DNA of 64,000 nt. Origin: a virus. Below are positions 15,591 to 59,872 of the stretch, in pieces. Made by a program: the position numbers and the translations under genes. The stretch spans positions 23,521 through 87,520 of IMG/VR virus record IMGVR_UViG_3300035698_035307; one strand, 5' to 3'. Numbering within the stretch: the first letter of the stretch is position 1; each line of letters begins with the position of its first letter. The notes under the pieces were generated by a model. The model saw only the letters and a list, made by a program, of their open reading frames with translations, made no database searches and had not been told where the DNA came from.

Positions 15591-15638
15591 ACTAAATCTT
15601 ATTTTTAAATATAACAATTAAATTCGCCTTTCCAAAGT

Positions 15639-16682: not shown

Positions 16683-17006
16683 ATGACTAAGATAAAATTT
16701 AAAGTATTATCATTTGACGGATTTATCAGCGAAAGTTTATCTGGTTTAAAATCTGCGAAAGATAAGAAGAACAAAGCTGCTTCAAGAGCAGGTGATTTAG
16801 AAGGACGTTCTGAAAAGAACCAAGCTAAATATGTTTTCTATGATGACAAAGAGAAATATGAAAAGAAACATCTGAAACTTCAGAATGATATCAAAGCTGA
16901 AGATGATAAAGTACAAAAGGAAAAACTTAGAGCAGAACTTAATAATCTCAAAAAAGAATGGAAGACAGAGCAAGCGAAATACAAAAGCGCAATAAAAGCA
17001 ATGTAA
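16683..17006 (+). CDS. Tagged internal-protein candidate, basic coiled coil
   Basis: 107 residues on the plus strand. The N-terminus MTKIKFKVLSFDGFISES fits the tag shared with the 46459-54340 operon (LSF-x-x-F-ISE), with a probable gp21-type cut after ISE (residue 17). The mature part would be a highly charged helix rich in Lys/Glu/Ala with no hydrophobic core, like the small T4 internal proteins. A rightward late box precedes it. It overlaps the next gene by 49 nt. The proposed role is a head-packed protein injected with DNA. This is inferred from the tag only. Confidence 0.6.
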   Translation: MTKIKFKVLSFDGFISESLSGLKSAKDKKNKAASRAGDLEGRSEKNQAKYVFYDDKEKYEKKHLKLQNDIKAEDDKVQKEKLRAELNNLKKEWKTEQAKYKSAIKAM

Positions 17007-20920: not shown

Positions 20921-22615
20921 TTAAATCATTTGGAAAGTGCTGAAGTCAACACCGAATGTGTAGTAATATAATTGAGGGTGGAAACCTGCTTCAACTAATG
21001 CATATCTAGACTTGATAGCAATTTTAGGAGCCATTGTTCCTTCTGCAATTGTAGATACTGATTCTGCCATTAAATAAGGCATGAATACAAGACCTGGTGA
21101 ATTACCGTCACCTTTTCTTCCAACTAATACTCTGTTGTCATTCCAACCCATATATGGGTCAACGTATACTGTTACGCCTGCTACTTGTCCTACTGGATAA
21201 AGTGAACCACCTTGTTGATTAAACGTGTTGGCCATTGCGTAAGGTACGAAACCTGAGATATCTTGTAAAGCTGTTGCAACTTGTCCGTTAGTTACTGCGA
21301 AGTTTGCTGCTCCTCTTCTACCTCTGATTGATACAAGGTTACTTGCTGCTAAAATTCTAGAAAGAATTTGTCTTTGAAGTGTTCCTTTGTTATCACCTGC
21401 TGTTGGTGTTGATGCTGGTACATTACCAGTAACTACTGCATTTCCTTCGTTGTCGTTTCCTAATGCGAAAGTTGTAGTACCACCTGTTGCGATGTATAAT
21501 GAAAGCTGAGTGCTATCATAAGCTTCAATCTGGCTATTATTAGTGTTACCTAATGCGAATAATCTGTCTAAGATATTCTTGTTAATTGATTGAGTAAGTT
21601 CGTTAGTAAGAATTGCTTCTACTTGAGCTACTGCGTCAATACCGAATTGTTTTAAATCTTGGATTTGCTCTCTAGTAACTGCTGCTGCTACTTGGAAAGT
21701 TTTAGCTTCAACTGACTTGTTGAATAAACTAAGACCCATAATGTTATCTTGTTGTGATTCACCTTCGCCTCTTGAATAAGGAGAGTTAGAATTAAACGTA
21801 GAACCAGCAAGTCCTGATAATCCGCTACCTGAGAATCCAGTAATATGGTCTTCAAGTGCTTTTACTAATTCAGCTGCACCGTCTATTTCTAGAACATCAG
21901 TTGATGCATTCTGTGTAGTATGGTTAGAGAATAAGCTATTACCTGCTGTAATTGCCATACCTAATGTGTCGTTAGGAGTTGCAAGACCTTTAGCATAAGT
22001 AGTTGCAGCAACACCTGTTGAAGTTTCTACTTTAAAGATTGGATAGTTATCAATTCTAGAGTTACCTACAAAGGTTAATCTGAATGTTGCAGTTGTTGAA
22101 CCAGCTGCTATTTGTGTGTATGCTACATCACCTTCTGCTAATGCCGCTGCTCCAGTTGATGCTGTTGCTGGGAATTTAACTAATAATGGTGCTTCAGTTC
22201 CATCAGTTCCACCTGTTACAGCGCCGATAGTACCACCTGCATATACAAAGTCTAAATAAGTCATCATTCCAAGAGGACCACTCATTGGAATAACAGGTAC
22301 TAAATCAAGTCCAATAGTTTGTGCTGCTACTTGCAATGCAAGTGGAAGTAAACTATAAGCTTTGTCACCAGAACCAGTTGTTTGGCTAGTGAATGCATTT
22401 TGTGTACCTGGGTCACCTGGAAGTGTTACTGGTCCCATACCTGGAACGTTCATACCTGGATTAAGGTGTACTAAGTTGTTCGCATCTTCGTAAAGATTGT
22501 GAAAGTGAGCGTATTTCGACATCCAACCAAGTTTATTAGCGTCTTCAACGCCAGTTGCTTCCTTGATAATAGGAGTCCATGTTGCTCTAACTTCTGCTTC
22601 GTTTATAAGTTTCAT
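20921..22615 (-). CDS. 23: Major capsid protein precursor (T4 gp23-like)
   Basis: 564 residues (T4 gp23: 521). The part from about residue 85 (YSLLPLALQVAAQTIGLDLV and the following TYLDFVYAGG) matches the start of the gp23 core, and the C-terminus has the usual AVVEAGFHPQ-like block (ALVEAGFHPQLYYYTFG). The first ~43 residues would be the propeptide. LYE followed by Asp44 fits the gp21 cut rule, giving a mature N-arm with LNPGMNVPGMG (51-61) and GSGD (81-84). That arm is shared with the 84-aa protein at 46459-46713. It has no late box of its own and is co-transcribed with the protease gene 48 bases upstream. Confidence 0.9.
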   Translation of the reverse strand: MKLINEAEVRATWTPIIKEATGVEDANKLGWMSKYAHFHNLYEDANNLVHLNPGMNVPGMGPVTLPGDPGTQNAFTSQTTGSGDKAYSLLPLALQVAAQTIGLDLVPVIPMSGPLGMMTYLDFVYAGGTIGAVTGGTDGTEAPLLVKFPATASTGAAALAEGDVAYTQIAAGSTTATFRLTFVGNSRIDNYPIFKVETSTGVAATTYAKGLATPNDTLGMAITAGNSLFSNHTTQNASTDVLEIDGAAELVKALEDHITGFSGSGLSGLAGSTFNSNSPYSRGEGESQQDNIMGLSLFNKSVEAKTFQVAAAVTREQIQDLKQFGIDAVAQVEAILTNELTQSINKNILDRLFALGNTNNSQIEAYDSTQLSLYIATGGTTTFALGNDNEGNAVVTGNVPASTPTAGDNKGTLQRQILSRILAASNLVSIRGRRGAANFAVTNGQVATALQDISGFVPYAMANTFNQQGGSLYPVGQVAGVTVYVDPYMGWNDNRVLVGRKGDGNSPGLVFMPYLMAESVSTIAEGTMAPKIAIKSRYALVEAGFHPQLYYYTFGVDFSTFQMI

Positions 22616-22663: not shown

Positions 22664-24493
22664 TTAATATTTACCATTCATTCTTTTAACAGATTGGATT
22701 ATATATTGCGCTTTCGATTCGTCAATTGCGGTATTTTCAACTTTCGCTGTAGTTTTACTTTCATTAACTTTCTCAATTACAATAGAAACATCTCTTAAAT
22801 CTCTTGTTTGCCAGAAATTATCAATCTGGTACTGAGTGTCTAATTTTGAGTATTTCGATTCGGCTATAATCTGATTCTTTTTAGCTTCGCTTAATTTATC
22901 CCATGTTTCACGGTATTCTGTTCCCATGTCTCTGATAAATCCAAGACCATCATTCTTTTCCTCTGGCTTAATTGCCGTTTCATAAATCTGTTCTACTTGT
23001 TCTTTATTAAAGTAGTTCTTGCCTTCAAACGCCTTTACAACGACGGTTTGTTTTTCTGCATCAAGTGCATAAAATCCGTCTTGCTTCTCTTTTGGTAAAA
23101 ATTGCATGAAATGCATTGTACCTTCTACTGTTTGCTTCTTAGCAGATTCGAGAATCATATTTAATTTTTCTGAAATTTCTTCTTTATAATCTTTTGGTTT
23201 AGTTTCCACTTTTGTATCGTTTGTGTTCGTATTAGTATTCGCATTCTCTTCAACATGAACTGCTGCAGATTTGTTTACGAATTTGTTGAATTTTTCTCCA
23301 ACTGTATTTGAATAGTTACCAACGTTCTCAAGATTACCTTTAAGGTATTCGGTATAGTTAACGTGCTTGTTAAAACCTTCACCTAAATAGTTTGTATATT
23401 TAGCTAAATCATTTGAACTTTCACCTATATATTTTGAGTATTCTTTTATTTGGTTTGCTCCAGTTGCTACGTGCTCAATATACTTAATTGCTTTTTCTAA
23501 TTCTGCACCTTGATACTCACCAAAGTTAATACCTTGATTAGTCTTTTCTGCAACGTGGTTTAAATGTTTTACTACGGTTTCTAATGTTTCGCTTAAGTAA
23601 TTGCTAAATTCTACAGATTTGTTAGCACCTTCGCCAACATGTCCTGAATAATCTTTAACTTTATTTAAACCTTCAGTAAGATAATTGTTATGACTAACTA
23701 ATTTATCTACGTTACCACCGATATAGTTAACATATTCAAATAATTGATTAACCTTCTGTGCTATTGCTTCAGAATATTCAATACCTGATTCTGTTTTGGT
23801 TTCTTTCAGTGCACCTTTTAAACCAGTGATTTCTTCTGAAATATATTTTGACCATTTTTCAAAATCCGGAGTTGAAACAAATTTATTATCTTCCATGTTC
23901 TCAGGGTTATTTTCTTTAATATATGTATCGCGGAAAAAGTCTTCTGGTACTTCAAAAACATGAACGTTATCATCATTTGTAAAACCGTACTGCTCATTCA
24001 CTCTTTTCAGCTGTGCATTTGCAAATCCAGGGTCAGCAACTAAGTCATAAGTAAATAATTTCTTAATTCTAACGTGTCCATTAGATTCTACAACACCTGC
24101 TGCTCTAGATGAGATATGAAGTGGTACGCCACCTTCTGCAAGTGCTTGGGCTTCTTTACCATGTGTAGTATCCAGTAATCTGATTCTTCCTAATACTTGT
24201 TTAGATTCTTTATCGTATTCTAGTTTCTCTATAACGTGTGAAGCTTTTGATAAAGAAACGTCAAAGTTTTGTGGATGGTCTAATTCACCTAATAATGTTC
24301 CAGCGCCAATTTTCTCTTGTAAGCCTTCAATCTGTGGTAAATATTCTGATTCATCATATATTCTTCCGTTCTTATTCTTGACTCCTATTTCGCCAAAAAT
24401 ACCTTCAAACACATAATTACCATTTTCATCCTTCTGTACCTGTACAGCAGGAGCTGTCTCTAAAATTAGAAGGTGTTTTAATTGTTCTGACAT
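22664..24493 (-). CDS. 21: Prohead protease fused to a scaffold-like repeat domain (gp21 plus gp22-like)
   Basis: 609 residues, about three times T4 gp21 (212). Residues 1-170 form the herpesvirus-type serine protease, with GELDHP (His73) and HISSRA (Ser128/129) and the strand LFTYDLVADPGF. Residues ~255-408 hold about eleven tandem 14-residue units of the form NYLGEGxNKxVxY. The C-terminal ~200 residues are helical and end in MNGKY. LILE followed by Thr near the N-terminus and IDES near the C-terminus are possible autocleavage sites. The repeat part occupies the place of T4 gp22, the core scaffold, so this looks like a scaffold fused to its own protease. It has its own late box at 24521-24530. 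Confidence 0.85.
   Translation of the reverse strand: MSEQLKHLLILETAPAVQVQKDENGNYVFEGIFGEIGVKNKNGRIYDESEYLPQIEGLQEKIGAGTLLGELDHPQNFDVSLSKASHVIEKLEYDKESKQVLGRIRLLDTTHGKEAQALAEGGVPLHISSRAAGVVESNGHVRIKKLFTYDLVADPGFANAQLKRVNEQYGFTNDDNVHVFEVPEDFFRDTYIKENNPENMEDNKFVSTPDFEKWSKYISEEITGLKGALKETKTESGIEYSEAIAQKVNQLFEYVNYIGGNVDKLVSHNNYLTEGLNKVKDYSGHVGEGANKSVEFSNYLSETLETVVKHLNHVAEKTNQGINFGEYQGAELEKAIKYIEHVATGANQIKEYSKYIGESSNDLAKYTNYLGEGFNKHVNYTEYLKGNLENVGNYSNTVGEKFNKFVNKSAAVHVEENANTNTNTNDTKVETKPKDYKEEISEKLNMILESAKKQTVEGTMHFMQFLPKEKQDGFYALDAEKQTVVVKAFEGKNYFNKEQVEQIYETAIKPEEKNDGLGFIRDMGTEYRETWDKLSEAKKNQIIAESKYSKLDTQYQIDNFWQTRDLRDVSIVIEKVNESKTTAKVENTAIDESKAQYIIQSVKRMNGKY
23270..23731. repeat. Eleven degenerate 42-bp units (14-residue repeats)
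   Basis: In-frame repeats coding for 14-residue units with conserved Tyr, Gly-Glu, Asn-Lys and terminal Tyr/Phe/His. Copies differ at the DNA level, so the array is old and maintained by selection on protein. Confidence 0.75.
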
Positions 24494-26177: not shown

Positions 26178-27341
26178 TTAGAAAAGTTTTTTAAAGTTCT
26201 CAGCTTCAAGTTCATTCTTTTTGTCACCAACTGCTTTACCTTTAATACCATATTCTTTCATTACTTCATTTCCTTTAACTGTAGGCTTGAATTTTAAGAA
26301 TGCTTTAACCATCTTTAGATTCATATTATTCCATTTTGCAAAGGTCATTAAATCTTGTGGGCCGATTTTGTTAACACCTGCCTGCGCAATCTTCCACTTG
26401 TTCTCAACAGCTAGGACTGTCTCTGGTGTCAGGTTCATAAACTCCTTAAGGAATATAATATCTCGAGTCTCATCTGCACCATACTTATGCTTTGTCATCT
26501 TCTTTATCAGATTATCATCATTCATTCTAACTAACTGAGCAAGATTGATAATCCACTTGTTTGAATTAACAAAATTGAAGTCAATATCATACCCTGGTAA
26601 TATCATTGGGAAGAATCCATAGTCTTTTAATAATCGAAGTGGGTGTGTAGTATCTTTAGCCTTAGAAATAGTTTTCTTAAACTCATCACGAATCCTTTCA
26701 GGAGAAACTCCATCTAAACTATTGTCAGCCTTTAGAGCTGATTCAATTGCCTTATCTGGTTTAGAACCAGCAACACCGGCAAATCTAATTGCTCTTAGTT
26801 TTCTAAGTGGGTCTTCATCGAATCTAGCTTTTGCATCTCCAACAGTTCTGATTTTATTATTCTCTAAATCTTTTACACCGCCGACAAGGTCTACGATTTC
26901 TTGAGTTTCAATATCATAGAACAAAGCGTTAATAGTTAAGTCTCTTCTTAAAACATCTTTATCGATTGTAGAATACTTAACGCCACCATCTGGTCTACGA
27001 CCTTTACCTAAATCTTCTCTGAATGTTGCAATCTCAAATGGTTCGCCATTGATTATTGCAATTGTCACACCTAAATCTTTAGATTTTCCACCGTCTATAG
27101 TTTTGTACTTACCTGCAATTATCTTATCTACTTGAGCAGGTGTTGCATCAGTAGCTACATCATAGTCTTTAGGTTTCTTACCTAATAAAGCATCACGAAC
27201 TGCTCCACCTACTACGTATAATTTGAATCCACTTTTCTTGAATAATTTATGAAGTTCCATCACTTCACTAGGTAAATTCAATTTGAATTTCTGTGCTGCT
27301 TCTATAAGCAGATTATATTCTTTAAATCCTTTTACTTTCAT
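26178..27341 (-). CDS. Tagged CCA-adding / poly(A) polymerase-family nucleotidyltransferase
   Basis: 387 residues. Residues 1-15 (MKVKGFKEYNLLIEAA) match the capsid-targeting-like tag, with a likely cut after LIE. The class II nucleotidyltransferase core follows: YVVGGAVRDALLG, the metal-binding DYD in KPKDYDVATDAT, RRDLTINALFYD and DPLRKLRAIRFA. Enzymes of this family add CCA to tRNA 3' ends or A-tails to RNA. The start codon overlaps the previous stop (ATGA) in the gp55-gp4 unit. The tag implies packing into the head and injection. tRNA 3'-end repair early in infection is an inference. Confidence 0.8.
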   Translation of the reverse strand: MKVKGFKEYNLLIEAAQKFKLNLPSEVMELHKLFKKSGFKLYVVGGAVRDALLGKKPKDYDVATDATPAQVDKIIAGKYKTIDGGKSKDLGVTIAIINGEPFEIATFREDLGKGRRPDGGVKYSTIDKDVLRRDLTINALFYDIETQEIVDLVGGVKDLENNKIRTVGDAKARFDEDPLRKLRAIRFAGVAGSKPDKAIESALKADNSLDGVSPERIRDEFKKTISKAKDTTHPLRLLKDYGFFPMILPGYDIDFNFVNSNKWIINLAQLVRMNDDNLIKKMTKHKYGADETRDIIFLKEFMNLTPETVLAVENKWKIAQAGVNKIGPQDLMTFAKWNNMNLKMVKAFLKFKPTVKGNEVMKEYGIKGKAVGDKKNELEAENFKKLF

Positions 27342-35247: not shown

Positions 35248-36603
35248 TTAATTTTGATTGCTACCATCATATTCATCACTCTCGCCGCTACCTGCAGCTC
35301 CACTCCATTCTTCAGTTGATTCAGTGAGTCTCATAAATTCGTAGTTAATTGTTAACTTAAATCTCATATTTTTACCTTCGCCATCTCTAATCTTTAGGAT
35401 TTTAAGCCAATACTCAGGTGGGTCAGATTCATACATTATCTTATCTTGAATAATTGCATACATCATATCTGCAGTATGTGATAGACCAGCTGATTCAGCA
35501 ATATTGTTCATTGTTATTTCAGTTGAATCATAACCATCTCTATTAATCTGAGTTGCAGTAATGATAAGCCAATCATTTCTAATTGCCATCGCTCTAAGGT
35601 CTTCAGCTATTTGCTTCACCTTCATGTAAGTATTATCACTATTAGGGTTTCTATAATTAGCTAAGATGTTAATGTAGTCAATTACTACTACTTGCATCTT
35701 AATACCCTTAACTTCTTCAAGTTCTTTTAAATATGCTTCGATATCTAAAACTGAAAATTGTGATGTTGGTACATGTTTAATAAATAATTGTCCAGGAGGT
35801 AATAAACCTTCTGACATTCTATCTAATTTTCTCTTAATGAGATTCTTGTCTCTTGCTTTCTTTGCATACTCAGACATTCCAATATTAAGAGCATTAGAAC
35901 CAATACGTTTCACAAATTTATGTGCACCCATTTCTGCAGAAATTACTGCAGTGTTGTGACCTCTTTTTACGAAGTTCACGGCATCATTTGCTAGGAAGAT
36001 AGATTTACCAATGTTTTGTTCACCAGCATATACAACTAATGATTGTTTATCATATCCACCATGTGTTACTGCATCAACGGCATTGTAACCTGTCGTAATC
36101 TTTTGTTCTTGTTTCTGGTCGTGACAAGCTGGGTCAAAAAAGTCTAAACCTAAATCTGTATTAAAGTTTAAATTATTTCTCTCATTTATTAATGTCTTAA
36201 CCTTGTTGATAATAGTATCAACGTTGTCTGGAGTAACTTTGTTCGTTTGAACATACTCCATTGTATCTAAGAGTGTTGTATCAAATGTCCTCCACTTAAT
36301 CCAAGCTTCTGCAGTAGTTTCTAACCATTCTGCATCGTATTCTTTTAAATTTACATCGTAAATAGCTGTTACTAAATCCTTTGAAATACCAGTTTGCTTT
36401 GCAGCCTTTGAATGGTCTATCAAAAGTTTCATTTGTTCAGCTGATGGTGTTTCTTTAAATTTTACGTAAAACTTATTTGCCAACGTTGAAAGAACATCAA
36501 TCTCTTTACTGGTATAATAATCTTTACCAATCTTGCTTAAGTATTTTGGTTTACTTAAACAGAGATTGAAAAAGGTCTTTTCGTAGTCTGCGTTAAAGTT
36601 CAT
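35248..36603 (-). CDS. 41: Replicative DNA helicase, DnaB-type (T4 gp41)
   Basis: 451 residues (T4 gp41: 475). The N-terminal helical domain (1-160) is followed by a RecA-like core: Walker A AGEQNIGKS (193-201), Walker B MQVVVIDYINIL, the Gln sensor ATQINRDGYD and the SAGLSHTADMMY motif. The C-terminal tail is acidic. It unwinds DNA 5'-3' on the lagging strand and works with the gp61 primase at 56547-57647. The ATG overlaps the end of the HAD phosphatase gene by 11 bases. Confidence 0.92.
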   Translation of the reverse strand: MNFNADYEKTFFNLCLSKPKYLSKIGKDYYTSKEIDVLSTLANKFYVKFKETPSAEQMKLLIDHSKAAKQTGISKDLVTAIYDVNLKEYDAEWLETTAEAWIKWRTFDTTLLDTMEYVQTNKVTPDNVDTIINKVKTLINERNNLNFNTDLGLDFFDPACHDQKQEQKITTGYNAVDAVTHGGYDKQSLVVYAGEQNIGKSIFLANDAVNFVKRGHNTAVISAEMGAHKFVKRIGSNALNIGMSEYAKKARDKNLIKRKLDRMSEGLLPPGQLFIKHVPTSQFSVLDIEAYLKELEEVKGIKMQVVVIDYINILANYRNPNSDNTYMKVKQIAEDLRAMAIRNDWLIITATQINRDGYDSTEITMNNIAESAGLSHTADMMYAIIQDKIMYESDPPEYWLKILKIRDGEGKNMRFKLTINYEFMRLTESTEEWSGAAGSGESDEYDGSNQN

Positions 36604-37132
36604 CTTTAGTTATCTTTTTAAAATCCTTTATCCAATAAAATTGTTTCATACCAGAATTATCTGCAAATCCTTTATCAGTCTCTCTATCTCCAACCATTAT
36701 CGAGTCTTTAATATTGATACCTAATTCAGATGCTGCTTTTAAAGCCATACCTGGATTTGGTTTTCTCATCTGGTCTCCAGCTGCATTTGTCTTGCTAAAA
36801 TATATTTTCTCGAAGTTAACACCTTCTTTCTTTGCAGCTTTCGTAATGTTTGCAAATTTTTCAATTATATCCTTTAAGCTTATGTAGCCTGCTGCAATGC
36901 TACCTTGGTTGCTTGCACCTATGATTTTATATCCAGCTTCTTGAAAAAGTTTAATTTTATTCAAAACACCTGGAATAAAAGCCCAGTCATCTTTGTCTTG
37001 CGGAAATGTACCCTTAGTCTTAGGTTTGATGACGGTATGGTCTAAATCTAAAAAAAGGCCAGCAGGTTTTTCCTCTTGACCTTCTTTAATAAATTGACCA
37101 AATGTTTTTATAAATAGTTTATCTTGTGCCAT
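36593..37132 (-). CDS. Tagged HAD phosphatase (PNKP/HisB-type)
   Basis: 179 residues. Residues 1-17 (MAQDKLFIKTFGQFIKEG) fit the capsid-targeting-like tag, with the probable cut after IKE. The HAD domain then shows LDLDHTVIKPKTKGTFP (nucleophile Asp in DLDHT), GASNQGSIAAGY, RKPNPGMAL and VGDRETDKGFADN. This is the HAD IIIA type found in polynucleotide 3'-phosphatases and histidinol-phosphatases. No kinase domain is present. In a phage, removing 3' phosphates from nicked RNA or DNA is the likely role. It sits among replication genes without a late box, an unusual place for a head-packed protein. Confidence 0.75.
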   Translation of the reverse strand: MAQDKLFIKTFGQFIKEGQEEKPAGLFLDLDHTVIKPKTKGTFPQDKDDWAFIPGVLNKIKLFQEAGYKIIGASNQGSIAAGYISLKDIIEKFANITKAAKKEGVNFEKIYFSKTNAAGDQMRKPNPGMALKAASELGINIKDSIMVGDRETDKGFADNSGMKQFYWIKDFKKITKDEL

Positions 37133-46447: not shown

Positions 46448-46473
46448 AAAAAAGCGAACTACAGTTCGCTTTT
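46448..46473 (-). terminator. Terminator of the tagged operon, overlapping the last codons
   Basis: AAAAGCGAACT-GT-AGTTCGCTTTT followed by TT on the minus strand. The TAG stop of the 84-aa gene (46459-46461) is inside the hairpin. Confidence 0.82.
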
Positions 46474-46713
46474 CTTTTTCTTTTTCTTCTTCTTTTTCTT
46501 CTTGACAGGTTCCTCTTCAGGAGGAATATACATTGGGCTGTCACCTGAACCAGGTTTCTGTAATGAAAGTGGACCATCTGGAGCACCAGGCAATGAAACT
46601 TTACCCATGCCAGGTACTGTCATACCAGGATTAAGACTTGCACCACCTACAACATCTTCATTTGCAAATTCTTCAAATGTGAATAACTTAAAGGTTGGTT
46701 TAGTGTCTTTCAT
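46459..46713 (-). CDS. Tagged poly-lysine protein with a capsid N-arm-like segment
   Basis: 84 residues. Residues 1-19 match the targeting-like tag (FTFEEFANE). Residues 27-59 (LNPGMTVPGMG, then LPG and GSGD) repeat the mature N-arm of the major capsid protein with identical spacing from the candidate cut site. The end has PPEEEPV and eleven consecutive lysines before SEL. The cut would leave a small basic protein able to contact both the capsid and DNA. It is the last of seven tagged genes and ends in a terminator hairpin. A DNA-condensing or capsid-lining role is inferred. Confidence 0.7.
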   Translation of the reverse strand: MKDTKPTFKLFTFEEFANEDVVGGASLNPGMTVPGMGKVSLPGAPDGPLSLQKPGSGDSPMYIPPEEEPVKKKKKKKKKKKSEL

Positions 46714-46714
46714 A

Positions 46715-47776
46715 CTATAAGCCTTTCATTTCATCTGCTAATTCCTTAGCATTTTCTTTAGCTACTTTTGGGTCATATTTACCAGCATGTCTACTTTTCA
46801 TATACTTCATTAAATCGCTAGCTTTCATTTTACCAGACTCAGCCATTGCTTGACGGATATCATCTTCTGACATTTCGTATTCTTTCGCTTCATTAACTTT
46901 TCTACTTCTAGCTTTCCATATTCTACTACCAGTTTCTGAAAGTGCTACCATACCACCTTTAACTTTGAATAAGCTTGAATTATTTCTAACCCATCTTTTT
47001 GAAAGATTAAATTCTGCTACGATTTTATCAAATTCTACTTGACTCATTTTCTTATCAGCCATAACTTCTAGAATCTTATCTCTTACTCTACCATGAAGAC
47101 CTGCTGATTTTGAAGGGTGATTCTCAGTATACTGCCTCTTGTATTGTACCTTCTTAGCTTCGTTCAAATCTTCTACACTACTGTTAGCTAGAGATTCTAA
47201 TTTAAGTTTCTTTCTTGCAATTTCATAATCTGCACCAGTTATTATGGCTTCTTCGTCATCAAATTCATCAGCTATTAAATCACGTAATTCATCGTCTGTT
47301 TCAATACCTAAAGATTTTGCACGCTTCATAAGCTTTTTGAACTGAGGAGTTGTGCCTTCATTAATACATTCTTCTAAATATTCAAAAGAACCTAAATCAG
47401 CTTCTTTGATAGTCAATGCATTTACTAAATGTCCTTTAAAGTATTTTGAAAAGAAAGCTTTGTTTTCCTTTGGCATTGGTTCTGGCATTGTATCATCGCC
47501 ATCTATAACTTCTTCGCCAGGTGGCCTATGGTCAATCATGATATCAATAATGTCCTCTTCATCCATATCTATAACATAAACATCTTTAGCTTTATATTTT
47601 ACTGAATCTCCTTCAGAATTAAGCTCAATTGCTAATTTGTCACCTTTTACAAAATCTACTTTACCAGCGTATTTCCAATCAGTAGTAACCACCATTCGCC
47701 ATCTTAAAAAATTATAATCTTTAGCTTCATTTAAAGACTCTTTAAAGTCTTCGAATAACATTACGTGTTGTTTCAT
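46715..47776 (-). CDS. Tagged probable polyprotein with repeated protease sites
   Basis: 353 residues. The tag is MLFEDFKESLNE (cut after Glu17). Further matches to the cut rule divide the protein: IKE-A (125), INE-G (140), LNE-A (206) and VNE-A (296). Three of these sites have the form NEAK. The pieces would be a beta domain (18-125), a helical domain (141-206), a winged-helix-like domain (207-296, with SQVEFDKIVAEFNLSKRWVRNN) and a C-terminal helical domain. It sits between the 1122-aa and 84-aa tagged genes. Function of the pieces unknown; DNA binding is plausible for the third. Confidence 0.65.
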   Translation of the reverse strand: MKQHVMLFEDFKESLNEAKDYNFLRWRMVVTTDWKYAGKVDFVKGDKLAIELNSEGDSVKYKAKDVYVIDMDEEDIIDIMIDHRPPGEEVIDGDDTMPEPMPKENKAFFSKYFKGHLVNALTIKEADLGSFEYLEECINEGTTPQFKKLMKRAKSLGIETDDELRDLIADEFDDEEAIITGADYEIARKKLKLESLANSSVEDLNEAKKVQYKRQYTENHPSKSAGLHGRVRDKILEVMADKKMSQVEFDKIVAEFNLSKRWVRNNSSLFKVKGGMVALSETGSRIWKARSRKVNEAKEYEMSEDDIRQAMAESGKMKASDLMKYMKSRHAGKYDPKVAKENAKELADEMKGL

Positions 47777-47791
47777 ATTATTGAGTTTATT

Positions 47792-50700
47792 TTATGCTTT
47801 CTTAAATTTATTTATCTCCAAAGTTACGGTAGATATTCCTGATATGTTAGTTCTAATCATTAATACTACTTGGTAAACTTCATCTTTGAACTTAACTTTA
47901 TAATCAATGTTAAGTCCCTTTGCAGTATTCTTATCAATTATATTTATAAGTTTGTTATCATCTATGATTTCTACACCACTCTGAGCTGGGAATGCTTCAG
48001 GTTCATGAATAGCACCTTTACTGGCACCAATAAGTTTGAAGAACGTAGGGTTCTTACCTAAACTTAAACCGAAAGAAGCTATTGAAATAAAGATATTCTT
48101 TTCAGCAGTAGTGTTCTCTAGAAGATAATACATCATTTTTAAGGCAGCGTACTTCGCTCTTGTATAATCATATACTTTAGCTTTGTTATTCTTCTGGAAT
48201 GCATCCTTATCAACTGTATATGTAAAGTAGTCAGAGTGCTTCTTAACTTGAGATGCAATTTTATTTCTAAAATTACCAATCTCTTTATAGTACTGTGCAA
48301 TCTTAAGACTATCTTCTTTCTTTGTTAGGTTATATGAATCAAGTTCAGTACCTTCTCTTCTTTTCATTGACTTCAAGAATGATTTGGCTTTACCTGCTTG
48401 AGCATTTTGTTCTTTAAGTGATATTCCTAATATCTGGTTTGAAGTATCTCCCCATGTATTAACAAAAATACCATTGATGTAACCTAATGCAAGTTCTTCA
48501 TTTGGTTCAGCTAAAGCTTTTGCAGTTTCAGTGTTGATTGAACTTTCTGTTCCTGGCTTAACTAAGAATATGTCAGATGAGTTCCATTTGTCAGAATATA
48601 AACCTGATACTTTTGCACCAGCACTTTTTACTTTGTCAAATATCTTATCTCTTTCAATATTCCATTTGCTATATTTACTGTTAGCTAAATATTCACCAAT
48701 TGACATTGCATTGTTCAATGACTTTACAATTCCTGGTGAGAATGTTTCTTCTGAAGAAGCTAATGTTTTAATGTTGTCATCTAATACTTTCTTTGATGTA
48801 CCTTCAATTCCATTTGATTTAAGATTTTTAAGTATCTCAGCTATCTTTTCAATGTAATTTTCTTTATCAATTCTGCCATAACCTTTGTTCTTAAAGTAAT
48901 AGTTTACGAAACTCTCTTTAAAGTCAGTAGATGTCTTTGCTGAGTCTTGTGAACCACCTGCTAGAATCATATAAATCTCGTCATCATTTACTTCAAATTC
49001 AATTGTAGTAAACTTACCTGAGTAAGCTCCTCTCTTTGTTACACTTGAAGGTAAACCTGCGATGTTTGGTTTTTCACCTGGTTCAATAGTTGTAACTGGG
49101 CCAGTTAATGTATATTCAGAATGGCTTTCAATGAATGTATTTATATCTTCTGTAAATTCTTCTACACTAACCTTTGTTATATTATTCACTCTATCTTTAG
49201 CACTTGCTGAACTATACTTACTTGAATAGCTTGCAATGAACTGTTTAATAAATGTGTTTCTTGTTTGAGAGTTTAATGATTCATTTATTATCTCATCGTC
49301 TTTGGATTCGTTTATAAAATCATTGAATGATTTCACTTGGAATGAATTTGATTCTCCCACTTTTTGTAATATTTTTTGCATATCTTTATATAATGGCCAT
49401 ACCCCTTTAGGTGTCCATTTCTTAAAATCTTTATCGTTATCGTCTTTAATAGCTTCTCTTACTTTAGTGGCTGATATGTTTTCTCCACTTCGTTTGATTT
49501 CAAATGCATTGAAGTCATCACCTGCGTTTAATTCTGTTCTGTACTTATCAATCATCTTCTGATATTGAGCATATCTGTCAGTACCTGCTCCCCATAAAAC
49601 TGGTTCGTACTTTGGACGCATTAAATTGAATAATGTATCAGGTGCTGCGTTAGGTGTAATAAAAGCATCCTTTAAGAATTTATATTCTTTTTGCATTCCT
49701 TTAAACATCTTTAATTGCATCTTATCATCGAAAGGTCTTCTTTCTGGGTCTGGCTTTCCACCTCTTACAATCATTACAACTACAGGTAAACCGTTCTTCT
49801 TGTGAATAGTTTCAAGTACTTTAACATGACCTAATGTAAATGGTTGGAAACGACCTACAAACATATTCACCTTTTCTTTACCAGGTTCTTTATGGTCTAA
49901 TGTAAGTGCTTCAAATATTTGGCTCTCGAAAATATCATTCTCTTCTTCTTGGATTCTACTTGTTCTTAAGAACGACGCAAAATCTAATACTTCGTTTTCC
50001 ATTGGCATTGCGTTTGTTTTCTTTTGTATTGAAGCTACAATATCATTGATAATTTTGATCGATTCATCTGAAAGTAAATCAGTTGCATGTTTACGAGTTT
50101 TCTTAAAAGAACTTAGCATAATTTTAAAAAGGTCATGCATAGCAGGATTCTTAAGAATCTTCTTAGTCACTTCGTTATCTATAAATTCTGGGTTCAATTG
50201 GAATACATCTTGCTTTGCAAAATCAGGAGTCTGAAAGTCCATGCCAGCATATTTATAACCGTTCGTTGCTACATACTGATTAAATATTGTTGATATTAAA
50301 TTGATGTATCTTTGGTCAGCTGTTTCACCTTCAACTGAAACATCATTTATGTCTAATGAAGATAAGAACTCAATTATATCAAGCATGATTATTTGATATG
50401 TGTCGTTCGACTTTCTATCTTCTTTCTTTAAGTTTGTCTTTTGCATTTCTTGAAAAAGTGGGTCAATTACTTGTGCGTTATAAACTTTCTTACCATTTAT
50501 AAACTTAAACACAATACTCTCTACCATATTGTCTAGAGAATTATTTAGAGCAGTCTTCTTCAGATTTGGATTGAGAATACTTACAACATATCTGGTAAAA
50601 GATTGAGTCTTAAATAGTGATTCTAAATCTGCATATGATGTATTCAAATAATCTTTAATCTTTTGCTTCTGTTGTAAGTTTAATTTTCCTTGAAATATAA

Positions 50701-51160
50701 CAGCAGGGTCTTGAACATCAAATGTCTCAGCCCATTTTTCTAAGATTGTTGTATCACTTATCACTTTAACTACATTACCACCTTCATTTCTAATAAGAAT
50801 GTCTGTGATGATTAAATTATTATGAGGAACACTATCATAAGTTACTGTAACTGGCTTTGTGTTTGCAACATATTCAAAACAAAAGTCCCAAGCTTCGGGC
50901 ATGATGTTCTTAATATCTACTGACATTGAGTCAAAGAATGTAATTGGTCTTTCATAGTAAACCATAATAGTTCTGTCAATCAAATTAATAGGATTCTTAT
51001 CATTCCCCTTAAAGAAGATTAAATTATCTCCCTTTCGTTGAACTCTGAATCGACTACCATCAATCATCTCAGTTACTATTACGTATTGATTAAGAAGCTT
51101 TTCAATGAAAGACGCTCCTTTTTCTGCATATATGTCTTTAAATGTTGCTAAGTTAGCCAT
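47792..51160 (-). CDS. Tagged pseudoligase plus NMNAT-like adenylyltransferase plus C-terminal module
   Basis: 1122 residues. Residues 1-20 form a weak tag (ATFKDIYAEKG). Residues 25-150 resemble a nucleic-acid ligase nucleotidyltransferase (TEMIDGSRFRV, WDFCFEYV), but the motif I lysine is replaced by Met. Residues 431-600 carry a nucleotidyltransferase of the NMNAT/cytidylyltransferase type: FVGRFQPFTLGH and ISATKVREAI. Residues 609-619 (VKSFNDFINES) are an internal copy of the tag, followed by INES. The last ~490 residues are an unrecognised module. The layout suggests two packaged proteins fused and separated again by the prohead protease. Substrates are unknown; NAD synthesis is one option. 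Confidence 0.7.
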   Translation of the reverse strand: MANLATFKDIYAEKGASFIEKLLNQYVIVTEMIDGSRFRVQRKGDNLIFFKGNDKNPINLIDRTIMVYYERPITFFDSMSVDIKNIMPEAWDFCFEYVANTKPVTVTYDSVPHNNLIITDILIRNEGGNVVKVISDTTILEKWAETFDVQDPAVIFQGKLNLQQKQKIKDYLNTSYADLESLFKTQSFTRYVVSILNPNLKKTALNNSLDNMVESIVFKFINGKKVYNAQVIDPLFQEMQKTNLKKEDRKSNDTYQIIMLDIIEFLSSLDINDVSVEGETADQRYINLISTIFNQYVATNGYKYAGMDFQTPDFAKQDVFQLNPEFIDNEVTKKILKNPAMHDLFKIMLSSFKKTRKHATDLLSDESIKIINDIVASIQKKTNAMPMENEVLDFASFLRTSRIQEEENDIFESQIFEALTLDHKEPGKEKVNMFVGRFQPFTLGHVKVLETIHKKNGLPVVVMIVRGGKPDPERRPFDDKMQLKMFKGMQKEYKFLKDAFITPNAAPDTLFNLMRPKYEPVLWGAGTDRYAQYQKMIDKYRTELNAGDDFNAFEIKRSGENISATKVREAIKDDNDKDFKKWTPKGVWPLYKDMQKILQKVGESNSFQVKSFNDFINESKDDEIINESLNSQTRNTFIKQFIASYSSKYSSASAKDRVNNITKVSVEEFTEDINTFIESHSEYTLTGPVTTIEPGEKPNIAGLPSSVTKRGAYSGKFTTIEFEVNDDEIYMILAGGSQDSAKTSTDFKESFVNYYFKNKGYGRIDKENYIEKIAEILKNLKSNGIEGTSKKVLDDNIKTLASSEETFSPGIVKSLNNAMSIGEYLANSKYSKWNIERDKIFDKVKSAGAKVSGLYSDKWNSSDIFLVKPGTESSINTETAKALAEPNEELALGYINGIFVNTWGDTSNQILGISLKEQNAQAGKAKSFLKSMKRREGTELDSYNLTKKEDSLKIAQYYKEIGNFRNKIASQVKKHSDYFTYTVDKDAFQKNNKAKVYDYTRAKYAALKMMYYLLENTTAEKNIFISIASFGLSLGKNPTFFKLIGASKGAIHEPEAFPAQSGVEIIDDNKLINIIDKNTAKGLNIDYKVKFKDEVYQVVLMIRTNISGISTVTLEINKFKKA

Positions 51161-51166
51161 TGTTTT

Positions 51167-52183
51167 TTAATATTTTGGTGCTAATGATTGTTTATATTCC
51201 TTTGGGTAATCTTCCTTTAAAATATCAGAATACTCTTTTGCTATTAGTTCAATATTAGCTTTCACTTCTTTTGAAACGCTCTTACCGTAAAAATCTTCGT
51301 AGATTGCTTCATATGTTTTAACTAAATTGTTAGCTCCTAAGCCACTTCCAGTATTTATTTCAATTAGAGATAGCTTACCATCTTTCTTTAAAAAGAAGTC
51401 GAATGAATAAAAATCAAATGCATCAGGATTTACTTTCGTAAATAAGTCTGCTCTCATCTTCATTAATTCTTTAGCATAGCTAGATTTATCTACATCTTGT
51501 TCGATGTATGTAAACTTAACCTTCTCATCTGTACCCTTTGTTGAAATAGTTTTGTTCTCTGAAATAATAGGGATTCTCTCGTTTAATGTAACAAGTTTAT
51601 CTTTTAAAAATAATCCTCTGAACTCTCTATCAAAATCTACAAACTCACTAAATAAATCAAACTTATTTTTGCTCTTTTGTAAATCTTCTATAGTTTTAAA
51701 TACTTCTATTCCAACACCACTTTGACCAGCTGAAGGCTTTGCAACAACTGGAAATTCTATGTCTTTTGTATCTTCAATTGAAAATACAGTCTTAGGTACA
51801 TATTCAACGCCATCTAATATCTCATGGAATTTAACCTTCGAAGAAACTTCTTCCATTCTCTTATCTGGAGAATTATAAATCTTCGAATATGATATGCTCT
51901 TATTATGCTTGTTCTTTAATATCTTCATACCGTCTTCACTCATATTTGCATAATACAATACAGGTGATGTTTTATCAAGTTTATAGTTGTCATAATTTTC
52001 AGAACCTAAGATTTCCCTTATTACAGGAATATAATACTCTGATAAGGCATATTGATTTAATCCTATCAACTTAGTATTAGTCACAGTAGTCACAGTGTCC
52101 ATTAACTTTACGAATTGGATTTTATTAAGTTCCTTTTCAGCTTCAGTTAAATATTCGTTAAATGTCTGTAATTTGTAGTTCAT
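51167..52183 (-). CDS. Tagged ATP-grasp enzyme
   Basis: 338 residues. Tag QTFNEYLTEAE, cut predicted after LTE (residue 14). The ATP-grasp part shows VVAKPSAGQSGVGIEVF (phosphate loop), FSEFVDFDREFRGL and the metal-binding FDFFLKKDGKLSLIEINTGSG. The family joins a carboxylate to an amine or thiol with ATP (RimK-like glutamylation, peptide ligation). The substrate cannot be deduced. It lies one base after a 71-aa tagged gene and six bases before the 1122-aa gene. Confidence 0.75.
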   Translation of the reverse strand: MNYKLQTFNEYLTEAEKELNKIQFVKLMDTVTTVTNTKLIGLNQYALSEYYIPVIREILGSENYDNYKLDKTSPVLYYANMSEDGMKILKNKHNKSISYSKIYNSPDKRMEEVSSKVKFHEILDGVEYVPKTVFSIEDTKDIEFPVVAKPSAGQSGVGIEVFKTIEDLQKSKNKFDLFSEFVDFDREFRGLFLKDKLVTLNERIPIISENKTISTKGTDEKVKFTYIEQDVDKSSYAKELMKMRADLFTKVNPDAFDFYSFDFFLKKDGKLSLIEINTGSGLGANNLVKTYEAIYEDFYGKSVSKEVKANIELIAKEYSDILKEDYPKEYKQSLAPKY

Positions 52184-52184
52184 C

Positions 52185-52400
52185 TTATAATTTCTTCTTT
52201 AAATCCTTAAGAGTTTTGATTTGGTCATTGATATATTCTTCAGCTTTGTCTGCATCTCCATCATCAACCCATTGTTGAATTGCATCTAATTCAGATTTGA
52301 TATTTTTAATCTTTATACTGAAATATCTAGAATCCATACCTTCGTTCACAGTATTCTCTTCTACTTTATGAAATTCTTCGAAGCTTTTAATGTTGTCCAT
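52185..52400 (-). CDS. Small tagged helical protein
   Basis: 71 residues. The start MDNIKSFEEFHKVEENTVNEG contains the aromatic tag core but only VEE/VNE as cut candidates. The remaining ~50 residues form two helices (IKNIKSELDAIQQWVDDGD and EYINDQIKTLKDLKKKL). It lies between the ligase-type and ATP-grasp genes with gaps of nine and one bases. It resembles the small T4 internal proteins in size and layout. Confidence 0.6.
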   Translation of the reverse strand: MDNIKSFEEFHKVEENTVNEGMDSRYFSIKIKNIKSELDAIQQWVDDGDADKAEEYINDQIKTLKDLKKKL

Positions 52401-52409
52401 CTTTAATTC

Positions 52410-53723
52410 TTATTTTTGCATTGAGTACTTAAGCGTACCTAATATTTGATTAACACTTGCAAATGCACCTGTTAACTTGTATGTCTTACCATTATATTGA
52501 AATACTATTCCTTCTGTAGGTAAAATTGCATCAAAACCACCAATTGCTTGAAGTCTACTTAATTGATACTTCATCTTGTGCATCAATGTTAAATCACCAG
52601 ACTTCTCAATCTGCTTCTGTAAATCTTCTAATTGCTTCTTAATGTCTTGTACTACCTTATCTGGATTAGCTGCAAGATAACCTGTAGCGTTTTTAAGTAC
52701 TTCCACTCCTAATGATAAGAATAACTCTTCAATTGGTTGAATATAGTCTTTACCGACTTGTTTAAATTCTTTCTTTGCAAATCCTACAACCCACTTTAAG
52801 AATTTAGGTGATTCTTTAAAATCTTTCTTCATGTTACCTACTGAGTAGCCATTGTCATAAAATCCAAATCTCTTAATTAAAAGAGGTATTTTCTCTTCTG
52901 CAACTTCTACTTCTAAATCTAAAGATTGAGCTTTCTTCTCAAGGAATGATTCCCATTCTTTGTAAATGTAATCTCCAATAGTATCAGTAGCACTTAAGCT
53001 CCATTTCTTTTGAATTTTATCTACAATTTTCATGAATCTCGCTTGATTCTTCTCAAAGTCTATAACCTTAGGCATATCTATTACTGCAGGAGGTCTGATA
53101 ACATAATGTTTTTGTATATCACTATTAACTCCTTTAATAAGTTTCTGTAGCGTATTCGCAGCTTCCTTATCGTCTGAAACAGGGTTACCTTCTTCATCGT
53201 AAGTAGTTGCACTGTGGAATATTAAATGTGGAGCGTCATAGTTAATAACGTTTGTTGATGGCGGGTAAATTACCTCGAGATGCATGAACGCATACCCATC
53301 TTTAAAAATTAAATCTCTATCTTTCGCAGAGACTTTTGAAATAGCCGATTCTAAATCTTCTATAGCAAATGTAAAACCATCTGAAAGGTCTCCTCTGCCA
53401 GCAAATTTATCTATTACTTGTTGTACAGTCATTGCAGCTGCACCACCATTTTTACGGTCACCTTTGTTACGTGCTGCAACTAAGTGGCCATCTCTCCAAC
53501 TAATAGCAATTGCTTGCCCATCAAGTTTTTCAGTAGATTCGACTTCTTTGTTTAATTGACCTTGTAAAGCCTGGTCAATAATGTCTTTGATTTGTGTAAA
53601 TGTAAGTGATGTATCATCGTAAGGATGGCTCATGTGTCCAAAAGCCCCACCTTCTAAAATAAAATCAGCTACATCTACATTATAATTCTCATTGACATAC
53701 TCTGTGAATGATAATAGCTTCAT
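52410..53723 (-). CDS. Tagged ligase-type nucleotidyltransferase
   Basis: 437 residues. The tag LSFTEYVNEN is followed by FILEGG, giving two possible cuts (VNE or ILE). Ligase motifs are intact: motif I EKLDGQAIAIS (Lys nucleophile), RNKGDRKNGG, motif III FMHLEVIYP, motif IV EGIVFQYNG and motif V YKLTGAFAS. The middle (about 230-380) is helical. The family seals nicks in DNA or RNA through an enzyme-AMP intermediate. Packed with a CCA-adding-type enzyme and a HAD phosphatase, RNA repair is attractive, but DNA-end sealing after injection is equally possible. Confidence 0.78.
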   Translation of the reverse strand: MKLLSFTEYVNENYNVDVADFILEGGAFGHMSHPYDDTSLTFTQIKDIIDQALQGQLNKEVESTEKLDGQAIAISWRDGHLVAARNKGDRKNGGAAAMTVQQVIDKFAGRGDLSDGFTFAIEDLESAISKVSAKDRDLIFKDGYAFMHLEVIYPPSTNVINYDAPHLIFHSATTYDEEGNPVSDDKEAANTLQKLIKGVNSDIQKHYVIRPPAVIDMPKVIDFEKNQARFMKIVDKIQKKWSLSATDTIGDYIYKEWESFLEKKAQSLDLEVEVAEEKIPLLIKRFGFYDNGYSVGNMKKDFKESPKFLKWVVGFAKKEFKQVGKDYIQPIEELFLSLGVEVLKNATGYLAANPDKVVQDIKKQLEDLQKQIEKSGDLTLMHKMKYQLSRLQAIGGFDAILPTEGIVFQYNGKTYKLTGAFASVNQILGTLKYSMQK

Positions 53724-53728
53724 TTATA

Positions 53729-54340
53729 TTATGCTTTTTTTCCTTTACCTTTTGTCCAACCGTTCTTTACCTTTGTGAAAAATTCTTTCTTCTTTTCTTC
53801 ACTTAATTCTCCTTGACTTTTAACGCCAAATTCAGCAAGTAAAGCTGAGAAATATTCTTTGTATTCTTTCTGTAATGGAGAAAGTTCTACTTCTAAAAGA
53901 GATTCAATATCTTCTGATTCTTCTATAACTGATTCACCTAATGTAGATGATGCAGCTCCAACCATTGCACCCCAATCGTCTTTATGTTTTGAGATAAGAC
54001 CGTTAATTACTTTGTCTGCTTTGCTAGCATCAAATTCATCGCCAAAAGCTTTCTTATAAAGTGCATATACATACTCCTTAAAAGATTCTTTGTCTTTAAC
54101 ATCTGCTTCGTTTAAAGCTTCGCTAACGCCGTCACCTTCCCAAGTGTTAATTTCATTGTAAAATTTAGCTCTTTTTTCTTCGTCTAATTCAGCAGGTGTG
54201 CTTACACCGTATTCTTGTAACTTAGTTTTGAAAAATTCACCATATTGAGCTTGTTTAGCTGCTTTGTCTTCTTCTACTTTCTTCGTCTGTACTTCAGACA
54301 TAAAAGTTGTGAAAGATTGAAAAGATTTAATATGTTCCAT
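53729..54340 (-). CDS. Tagged two-module head protein, first gene of the operon
   Basis: 203 residues. Tag KSFQSFTTFMSE. Two related ~40-residue modules at 33-72 and 160-200 share YxEYF-L-EYGV-ELxEEKKxxF-W. Between them are LNE-A (cut after 78) and LLE-V (after 150), so the protease could release the modules separately. The C-terminus is basic (KGKGKKA). It starts 18 nt after the late box and leads the operon. I recall similar modules in marine T4-like phage proteins but cannot name the family. Confidence 0.65.
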   Translation of the reverse strand: MEHIKSFQSFTTFMSEVQTKKVEEDKAAKQAQYGEFFKTKLQEYGVSTPAELDEEKRAKFYNEINTWEGDGVSEALNEADVKDKESFKEYVYALYKKAFGDEFDASKADKVINGLISKHKDDWGAMVGAASSTLGESVIEESEDIESLLEVELSPLQKEYKEYFSALLAEFGVKSQGELSEEKKKEFFTKVKNGWTKGKGKKA

Positions 54341-59491: not shown

Positions 59492-59872
59492 TTAAATTTT
59501 TAACCTACTACCTAAAGCTGCACCTACTGCGGCACCTACTAAACGACTTGTAAGTAAATTATATAAGAATCCGTCTTTAATTCCTAAAACTTTAGCAATC
59601 AATTTACCAACTGTCTTACCTAATGCAAGTCCAGTAAGTCCACCTAACATAGTACCAAAGATACCTTCATTAGTTAATTCACTATTAAAATCATTAATAT
59701 CTTTAACTCCATCTAAATATTCTGCAACAAATTCGTCTAATGCAGAGTCTATCTTAGCTTCTTCATCTTCTGTTAACTCTTCCTTTAAGTTTTCATTAAG
59801 AGATTTTATTTCTTCTTCGGTAAAGTATTCGTTTTCTTGTAAATACTCTTTAAATGATTTTACTTGGTCCAT
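59492..59872 (-). CDS. Tagged glycine-zipper membrane-active protein
   Basis: 126 residues. Tag VKSFKEYLQEN, with a cut expected after LQE (residue 13). Residues 14-75 are acidic and helical. Residues 82-124 hold two glycine-zipper hydrophobic segments (GTMLGGLTGLALGKTVGKL and RLVGAAVGAALGS). A head-packed, membrane-inserting protein could help DNA cross the inner membrane or alter it against superinfection. It follows the tube-like gene 59897-60448 by 24 bases. No clear late box; a degenerate TATATAGATAAAA lies upstream. Confidence 0.65.
   Translation of the reverse strand: MDQVKSFKEYLQENEYFTEEEIKSLNENLKEELTEDEEAKIDSALDEFVAEYLDGVKDINDFNSELTNEGIFGTMLGGLTGLALGKTVGKLIAKVLGIKDGFLYNLLTSRLVGAAVGAALGSRLKI

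What the first reader, a model, noticed from the sequence alone, without database searches (positions are those of the whole stretch)
46459..54340. Seven-gene late operon in which every protein carries a T4-internal-protein-like capsid-targeting tag
Seen: seven consecutive genes after one late box start with variants of [KLQ]-[ST]-F-x-x-[FY]-x(1-5)-[LIV]-x-E, e.g. KSFQSFTTFMSE, LSFTEYVNE, KSFEEFHKVEE, QTFNEYLTE, ATFKDIYAE, MLFEDFKESLNE, FTFEEFANE. Known: T4 internal proteins begin MKTYQEFIAEA. That short sequence targets them into the prohead, and gp21 cuts after [LI]-x-E. Inference: the whole operon encodes proteins packed in the head and injected with DNA. Most are enzymes or polyproteins, not small basic proteins, which I do not know to be described as a system.
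Basis: partly seen in the sequence, partly recalled or inferred. Interest (0 to 1): 0.93.

Follow-up and report, generated by a model that had tools for sequence, protein, structure and literature searches.

The report
Phage head-delivery tags and capsid mimics
A T4-like phage puts a short "pack me into the virus head" tag on about sixteen different proteins, many of them enzymes that could protect the infection from its first moments, and one tagged protein carries a copy of the start of the phage's own mature shell protein, an unexplained trick that the classic phage T4 also turns out to have.

Summary
Five of the seven consecutive genes have a clear N-terminal tag resembling the T4 capsid-targeting sequence (CTS), and p353 has a longer-spaced variant. 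The N-terminus of p1122 is probably ordinary domain sequence, but p1122 carries a real internal tag (residues 610-618) that a relative conserves. The tag is far above chance: 9/159 gene starts against 1/1820 internal windows, p=1e-9. It is not confined to the operon. About ten other genes have it, including an Acb1/2H-like phosphoesterase, a PNK 3'-phosphatase and a CCA-adding enzyme. The "late box" was not confirmed. The phage has an S77 prohead protease. The best reading is a CTS cargo set packed into the head and injected: the T4 internal-protein mechanism with enzyme and polyprotein cargo. Packaging itself is inferred.

The most novel result came from the last gene, p84. After its tag and cut site it copies the mature N-terminus of this phage's own major capsid protein (MCP), followed by 11 lysines. 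The same architecture (cut site, copy of the phage's own MCP start, usually a Lys-rich tail) occurs in T4 gp61.1, KVP40, a cyanophage, Tenacibaculum phage PTm1 and a 462-kb phage. In T4 this region is the N-fist. I found no description of such mimics.

The parts
53729..54340 (-). p203, tagged; two copies of a small repeat domain (phrog_28651)
   Evidence: orthologs in L008, L009, L118, L119, LR756500
54293..54328 (-). tag of p203, KSFQSFTTFMSE
   Evidence: pattern test
52410..53723 (-). p437, tagged nucleotidyltransferase / RNA-ligase-like protein (KLDG motif)
   Evidence: Pfam DNA_ligase_aden E=0.0016, below its cut-off; weak Foldseek top hits T4 RNA ligase 1 and 2
53688..53714 (-). tag of p437, LSFTEYVNE
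   Evidence: pattern kept in four relatives while letters change; residues 1-31 have pLDDT 25-31, outside the fold
52185..52400 (-). p71, small tagged protein; second site TVNE|G
52356..52388 (-). tag of p71, KSFEEFHKVEE
51167..52183 (-). p338, tagged ATP-grasp enzyme (R2K / D-Ala-D-Ala-ligase-like)
   Evidence: Pfam R2K_2 1.1e-6, Dala_Dala_lig_C 3.3e-6
52142..52168 (-). tag of p338, QTFNEYLTE
   Evidence: closest in the genome to T4 IPIII CTS
47792..51160 (-). p1122, fused protein: N-terminal part with a CTP_transf/NMNAT-like domain (433-569), internal tag, C-terminal 504-residue module of unknown fold
   Evidence: L118 has the same architecture; other relatives encode the N-terminal part alone
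49307..49333 (-). internal tag of p1122, KSFNDFINE|S (residues 610-618), followed by IINE|S
   Evidence: apart from one match in ORF 7844, the only strict-pattern match away from an N-terminus in this genome
51122..51148 (-). ATFKDIYAE at the N-terminus of p1122; probably not a tag
   Evidence: relatives show a conserved domain helix here
46715..47776 (-). p353, tagged likely polyprotein with four [LIV]NE|[AG] sites (after residues 17, 140, 206, 296)
   Evidence: the domain after EDLNE|AKK is a separate tagged protein in L119
47726..47761 (-). tag of p353, MLFEDFKESLNE
   Evidence: longer spacer than the T4 CTS, not caught by the pattern
46459..46713 (-). p84: tag + copy of the mature MCP N-terminus + Lys11
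   Evidence: alignment to own MCP score 98, next best ORF 50
46657..46683 (-). tag of p84, FTFEEFANE
46540..46656 (-). MCP N-terminus (N-fist) mimic in p84, DVVGGASLNPGMTVPGMGKVSLPG...GSGD
46471..46503 (-). Lys11 tail of p84
20921..22615 (-). major capsid protein (T4 gp23-like); predicted cut LYE|DANN after residue 43
   Evidence: tblastn to T4-like MCPs; PAU homolog is N-terminally processed within one residue of the equivalent LME|N (PMC5646251)
22364..22486 (-). MCP mature N-terminus copied by p84
22664..24493 (-). S77 prohead protease with a long C-terminal extension (609 aa), probably fused scaffold
   Evidence: Peptidase_S77 E=1.1e-12, over cut-off; PTm1 homolog annotated 'prohead core scaffolding protein and protease'
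36593..37132 (-). tagged (KTFGQFIKE|G) PNK 3'-phosphatase-like HAD
   Evidence: PNK3P 2.4e-19; LR756500 ortholog tagged too, with a non-homologous linker
26178..27341 (-). tagged (GFKEYNLLIE|A) CCA-adding / polyA polymerase
   Evidence: PolyA_pol 8e-34; KVP40 homolog lacks the extension
16683..17006 (+). tagged (LSFDGFISE|S) small Lys-rich protein
59492..59872 (-). tagged (KSFKEYLQE) 126-aa protein
   Evidence: orthologs tagged in L118, L119, L122

Best explanation
The seven-gene block is the largest cluster of a genome-wide set of head-cargo genes. Each cargo protein has a short, flexible N-terminal peptide (or, in p1122, an internal one) made of two aromatics three residues apart and then hydrophobic-x-Glu. 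By analogy with the T4 CTS, the aromatics bind the growing scaffold core. The S77 prohead protease then cuts after the Glu, leaving the protein loose inside the head to be ejected with the DNA. Cargo includes ATP-grasp, NMNAT-like and RNA-ligase-like enzymes, an Acb1/2H-like phosphoesterase, a PNK 3'-phosphatase, a CCA-adding enzyme and multi-site polyproteins. This fits a ready-made repair and counter-defence kit. Shown: the tag, its non-randomness, its persistence and swapping between orthologs, and the protease gene. Inferred: packaging, cutting, injection and function. p84 is a special member: after its cut it would expose a copy of the mature MCP N-terminus ahead of a polylysine tail. The proposal is that this copy docks into N-fist sites of the shell while its tail faces the DNA.
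For: Tag enrichment at gene starts against internal windows and clustering; closeness to the T4 IPIII CTS and its mutational map (PMC9026906). S77 protease present. The ligase-like protein keeps the aromatic pair and the final Glu in all five aligned sequences while the letters between change, and the tag lies outside the predicted fold. Tag modularity: the PNK3P ortholog in LR756500 is tagged through an unrelated linker; the Acb1-like ortholog in L120 and the CCA homolog in KVP40 lack the tag. The domain after EDLNE|A in p353 is a stand-alone tagged protein in L119. PAU, a related phage, has its own tag (MKT[LI]xxLYE) on 17 of 300 genes, p=4e-14, including both proteins annotated 'internal capsid protein' in its record. 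Mimic.
Against: No virion proteomics. [LIV]xE sites overall are not enriched in tagged proteins; only [LIV]NE[AGSN] is (7 observed, about 1.5 expected from the other genes, p=0.003). Tag spacing varies, p1122's N-terminal tag is doubtful, and the Acb1-like protein has FIED, where Asp at the cut position blocks processing but not targeting in T4 (PMC9026906). No late promoter confirmed. Gene starts are mechanical ORF calls. The residue classes were chosen with the window in view. Enzyme functions rest on profile matches; the p437 fold matches are not significant alone.
Confidence: 0.78

Rival explanations
1. The tags bring the proteins to the scaffold core only for head assembly (like T4 gp67/gp68); the proteins are assembly or scaffold parts, and injection is incidental.
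For: p203, p71 and the 126-aa protein have no recognisable enzyme domain; T4 core proteins are also cut by gp21 (PMC9958956).
Against: Most tagged proteins with a known domain are enzymes with no evident assembly role (PNK3P, CCA, ATP-grasp, Acb1-like), and orthologs gain and lose the tag.
Confidence: 0.15
2. The pattern is chance or a compositional effect of an AT-rich genome full of F, E, K and Y at gene starts.
Against: The T4-spaced pattern has an odds ratio of 109 over internal windows and 48 in LR756500; controls SPO1 and lambda show none.
Confidence: 0.04
3. For p84/gp61.1: the MCP-start copy is a decoy for a host sensor or for chaperone binding, not a shell part; or it is a by-product of recombination with the MCP gene.
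For: T4 gp61.1 is encoded among replication genes, not head genes; the copy contains only the MCP's free N-terminus.
Against: The copy sits right after a predicted prohead cut site in nearly all cases and after a CTS in T4, JEP8, S-SM2 and p84, so it would be made inside the head. PTm1's copy is encoded between portal and protease genes. It persists in Straboviridae, cyanophages and Bacteroidota-type phages.
Confidence: 0.25

Closest known systems
T4 internal proteins IPI, IPII, IPIII with the capsid-targeting sequence
   Same: Same residue pattern and spacing (Y/F-xx-F-I-x-E), same protease family, N-terminal position
   Different: T4 has few, small cargo proteins; here about 16 genes, several large enzymes, polyproteins, and one internal tag; packaging not shown
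T4 gp61.1
   Same: CTS + copy of the mature gp23 N-terminus + Lys-rich tail, as in p84
   Different: The copied sequence is T4's, not alignable to this phage's; gp61.1 is encoded next to the primase gene; it is annotated only as hypothetical
Sphingomonas phage PAU 'internal capsid proteins' gp142, gp154
   Same: Bacteroidota-type T4-like phage with a recurrent N-terminal tag on many genes near the head cluster
   Different: Different tag letters (MKT[LI]xxLYE)
phiKZ / SPN3US ejection proteins
   Same: Many head-packed proteins cut after x-x-E by a gp21-related protease (PMC9026906)
   Different: S/A-x-E motif and propeptides with several cut sites rather than a 10-residue tag
Polyvalent injected proteins (Iyer et al. 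2017, PMC5512222)
   Same: Multidomain conflict proteins proposed to be delivered with phage DNA
   Different: No CTS-type tag mentioned in the passages read

Membership tests
T4-type CTS internal proteins | N-terminal ~10 residues with two aromatics three apart | tested here: met
   6 of 7 block genes and about ten others; doubtful for p1122 N-terminus
T4-type CTS internal proteins | [LI]-x-E cut site directly after the aromatics | tested here: met
   p437, p338, p84 exact spacing (with V, L and A at the hydrophobic position); p203, p71, p353 with longer spacer
T4-type CTS internal proteins | S77 prohead protease in the genome | tested here: met
   E=1.1e-12, over the curated cut-off
T4-type CTS internal proteins | small, basic, non-enzymatic proteins | tested here: not met
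   enzymes of 179-1122 residues; so 'uses the same tag', not 'is an IP homolog'
T4-type CTS internal proteins | present in the virion and cut | not testable with these tools
   needs mass spectrometry
T4-type CTS internal proteins | late promoter | tested here: inconclusive
   TATAAATA not enriched, none just upstream of 54340
gp61.1-type MCP N-terminus mimics | copy of the phage's own mature MCP N-terminus | tested here: met
   score 98, next best 50; other MCP windows find only a gp23-like paralog
gp61.1-type MCP N-terminus mimics | cut site just before the copy and basic tail after it | tested here: met
   ANE|D; Lys11
gp61.1-type MCP N-terminus mimics | common descent with gp61.1 | tested here: inconclusive
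   the own mimic does not match T4's MCP start and the T4 mimic does not match the own MCP start; either co-evolved beyond recognition or arisen independently

The most novel reading that the evidence does not exclude
T4-like phages in general carry a small head protein, of which T4 gp61.1 is the type, that mimics the mature N-fist of the phage's own major capsid protein and usually ends in a basic tail. It is loaded into the prohead (by a CTS or another N-terminal domain), exposed by the same protease that matures the MCP, and inserted into N-fist sites not filled by the MCP, for instance beside the vertex protein, tethering the shell to the packaged DNA. It tracks each phage's MCP across three N-fist classes that do not align with one another.
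Probability: 0.5. Interest if true: 0.85.

Novelty: new variant of a known kind. Interest (0 to 1): 0.74.

Why it matters
A readable head-delivery code would let one list, from sequence alone, which proteins a T4-like phage injects, and therefore which counter-defence enzymes act before any phage gene is expressed. Here that list includes RNA-repair and nucleotide enzymes, and one with an anti-CBASS (Acb1-like) profile match. The capsid-start mimics give T4's gp61.1, for which I found only hypothetical annotations, a concrete and directly testable role in the best-studied virus head.

Tried and rejected
General [LIV]xE enrichment in tagged proteins: none. T4 late-box search: no support. PAU and MaF61 show no MCP-start mimic; PAU's best hit is dihydrofolate reductase, taken as chance. 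p84 relatives in viral contigs by peptide pattern: none, although L118 and L120 carry counterparts at or near the same operon position. AlphaFold of the p1122 C-terminal module: pLDDT 49, not interpretable. AlphaFold of p437: pLDDT 66; RNA ligases rank first but are not significant. PADLOC: no hits. Solved-structure sequence searches: nothing informative. For Aeromonas phages Ah1 and CC2 the MCP start could not be read from the fetched loci, so they are not counted in the own-MCP comparison. Literature: of the two papers in the library that hold 'gp61.1', the one read lists it as 'conserved hypothetical' in a table; the other was not opened.
Full report
What the window is. It is bases 23521-87520 of a 151,520-base virus record. 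The major capsid protein (MCP, 20921-22615) is closest to a 462-kb uncultured phage (LR756500), Prevotella Lak phages, Tenacibaculum PTm1 and Sphingomonas phage PAU, so this is most likely a Bacteroidota-type T4-like phage. A Peptidase_S77 prohead protease sits at the start of a 609-aa ORF just upstream of the MCP, with the portal beyond it.

The observation. All seven genes exist. In T4 only the first 10 residues of IPIII are needed for packaging; residues 4 and 7 matter for targeting, 8 and 10 for cutting after L/I-x-E (PMC9026906). Scored only by similarity to that T4 peptide, p338 ranks first in this genome, and p437, p84 and p203 are in the top 12 of 159. The strict pattern occurs at 9/159 gene starts against 1/1820 internal windows (p=1.1e-9). 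LR756500 repeats this (6/539 against 1/4226), and SPO1 and lambda have none. A looser pattern marks 6 of the 7 block genes, among 14 of 150 minus-strand genes. p353's longer-spaced MLFEDFKESLNE is not caught by these patterns. p1122's N-terminus is probably not a tag, because relatives show a conserved domain helix there without the aromatic pair. p1122 does have a true tag inside, KSFNDFINE|S at 610-618, conserved as LSFNEYLNE in L118. Relatives such as LR756500 and L120 encode the part before that point alone, so p1122 looks like two proteins joined with the second one's tag retained.

Beyond the operon. The same tag is on other genes (genome coordinates): 4618; 7844 (a second ATP-grasp); 13610 (2H phosphoesterase, with Pfam 2_5_RNA_ligase2 and Acb1 both over cut-off); 14207 (phosphoribosyltransferase-like, below cut-off); 40203; 49698 (CCA-adding / polyA polymerase); 60113 (PNK 3'-phosphatase); 83012; 142571; and, by eye, 6077 (KNFNEFHDLNE|A). 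13610 and 14207 lie next to 14752-15861, a 369-aa gp23-like ORF that is probably the vertex protein.

Evidence that the tag is a module. In the five aligned members of the ligase-like family the two aromatics and the final Glu persist although the letters between change. AlphaFold places residues 1-31 outside the fold (pLDDT 25-31). The PNK3P ortholog in LR756500 is tagged (MKYIQTYDDFLNE) through a non-homologous linker, while the Acb1-like ortholog in L120 and the KVP40 CCA enzyme have no such extension. In p353, the domain that follows EDLNE|AKK is a separate tagged protein in L119 (MNKFEDFLEE|GKK; 42% identity); by eye the same domain follows SFLNE|RRT in L123 and ADLNE|GRQ in L008. PAU uses its own variant, MKT[LI]xxLYE, on 17 of 300 genes (p=4e-14), mostly around its head genes, including both genes annotated 'internal capsid protein' in its record. 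N-terminal sequencing of PAU's MCP gives a mature length of 520 of 585 residues (PMC5646251), within one residue of the LME|N site that corresponds to this phage's LYE|D.

The capsid-start mimics. p84 after its predicted cut reads DVVGGASLNPGMTVPGMGKVSLPG...GSGD and then, 12 residues on, Lys11. This phage's MCP after its predicted cut reads DANNLVHLNPGMNVPGMGPVTLPG...GSGD. Scanning every ORF of at least 25 aa in each genome against the start of that genome's own MCP found one strong hit in six genomes: own 98, LR756500 95, T4 gp61.1 82, KVP40 93, S-SM2 119 and PTm1 109, with second-best scores of 46-53. PAU and MaF61 had none. Other MCP windows find only gp23-like paralogs such as T4 gp24, or nothing. 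T4 gp61.1 is MKTFKEFIKE|DMVAGDSGGNPENISIGTTSGAVVNKGPEQIPKKKKEESKEKEE: a CTS, a copy of the mature gp23 start and a Lys-rich tail. gp61.1 queries match more than a thousand T4-like records, in part through the MCP itself, and a few records label the gp61.1 homolog 'major capsid protein'. In Acinetobacter, Aeromonas, Vibrio, Citrobacter and Cronobacter phages a longer N-terminal domain replaces the CTS, but an x-E site still precedes the copy and a basic tail follows it. In L118, L120 and LR756500 the copy follows a DUF3008-like domain (naming from memory). In PTm1 it follows a ParB-like domain (from memory; relatives include DarB-like proteins) and is encoded between portal and protease. Scores form blocks: Straboviridae, cyanophage and Bacteroidota-type mimics match only their own class of MCP start. 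In cyanophage S-SKS1 both MCP and mimic carry a shorter version of the start, though that alignment alone (score 38) is within the shuffled range. [quoted passage not shown]

How it most likely works. Shown: tags, copies, cut-site positions, protease gene. Inferred: the tag binds the scaffold core; the protease cuts after Glu; cargo is released inside the head and ejected with DNA; p84/gp61.1 docks its fist in vacant fist sites, perhaps near vertices where Soc is also missing in T4, with its tail on DNA. A decoy role is the main rival for the mimic.

Novelty. CTS-based packaging of varied proteins has been proposed for T4-like phages (PMC9026906). New here, as far as I could find, are the scale, the enzyme and polyprotein cargo, the internal tag, and above all the MCP-start mimics. 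Two papers in the library name gp61.1; the one read lists it as hypothetical. Subscription literature was not searched.

Noticed in passing
46459-46713; T4 NC_000866 18966-19130; L078:5261-5644; L104:13248-13724; L089:11376-11804; L016:16795-17628: Proteins carrying a copy of the phage's own mature MCP N-terminus after a cut site, mostly followed by a Lys-rich tail; includes T4 gp61.1.
   Followed up: yes
L017 (PAU NC_019521, about 100-114 kb): Seventeen PAU genes start with MKT[LI]xxLYE, a different-looking tag of the same kind.
   Followed up: partly
genome 13610-14194 (L003:2111-2695): Tagged 2H phosphoesterase with a Pfam match to anti-CBASS Acb1 over cut-off; candidate injected counter-defence enzyme.
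   Followed up: partly
L078:5261-5644: In LR756500 the mimic protein ends in a C-terminal copy of the tag (KFIKTFNEFKTE), as if the tag can work at the C-terminus; T4 Alt also has a C-terminal propeptide (PMC9026906).
   Followed up: no
L014:11243-13162; L015:13867-16614: In Microcystis phage Mel-JY01 the ligase-like domain is fused to a cytidylyltransferase domain, and in LR756508 it sits at the end of a 915-aa protein; here the two functions are nearby genes of one operon.
   Followed up: partly
22664-24493: Prohead protease fused to a long repeat-rich region, probably the scaffold, as in PTm1 gp300.
   Followed up: no
genome 14752-15861: A 369-aa gp23-like ORF without the N-terminal fist, probably the vertex protein, next to two tagged genes.
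   Followed up: partly
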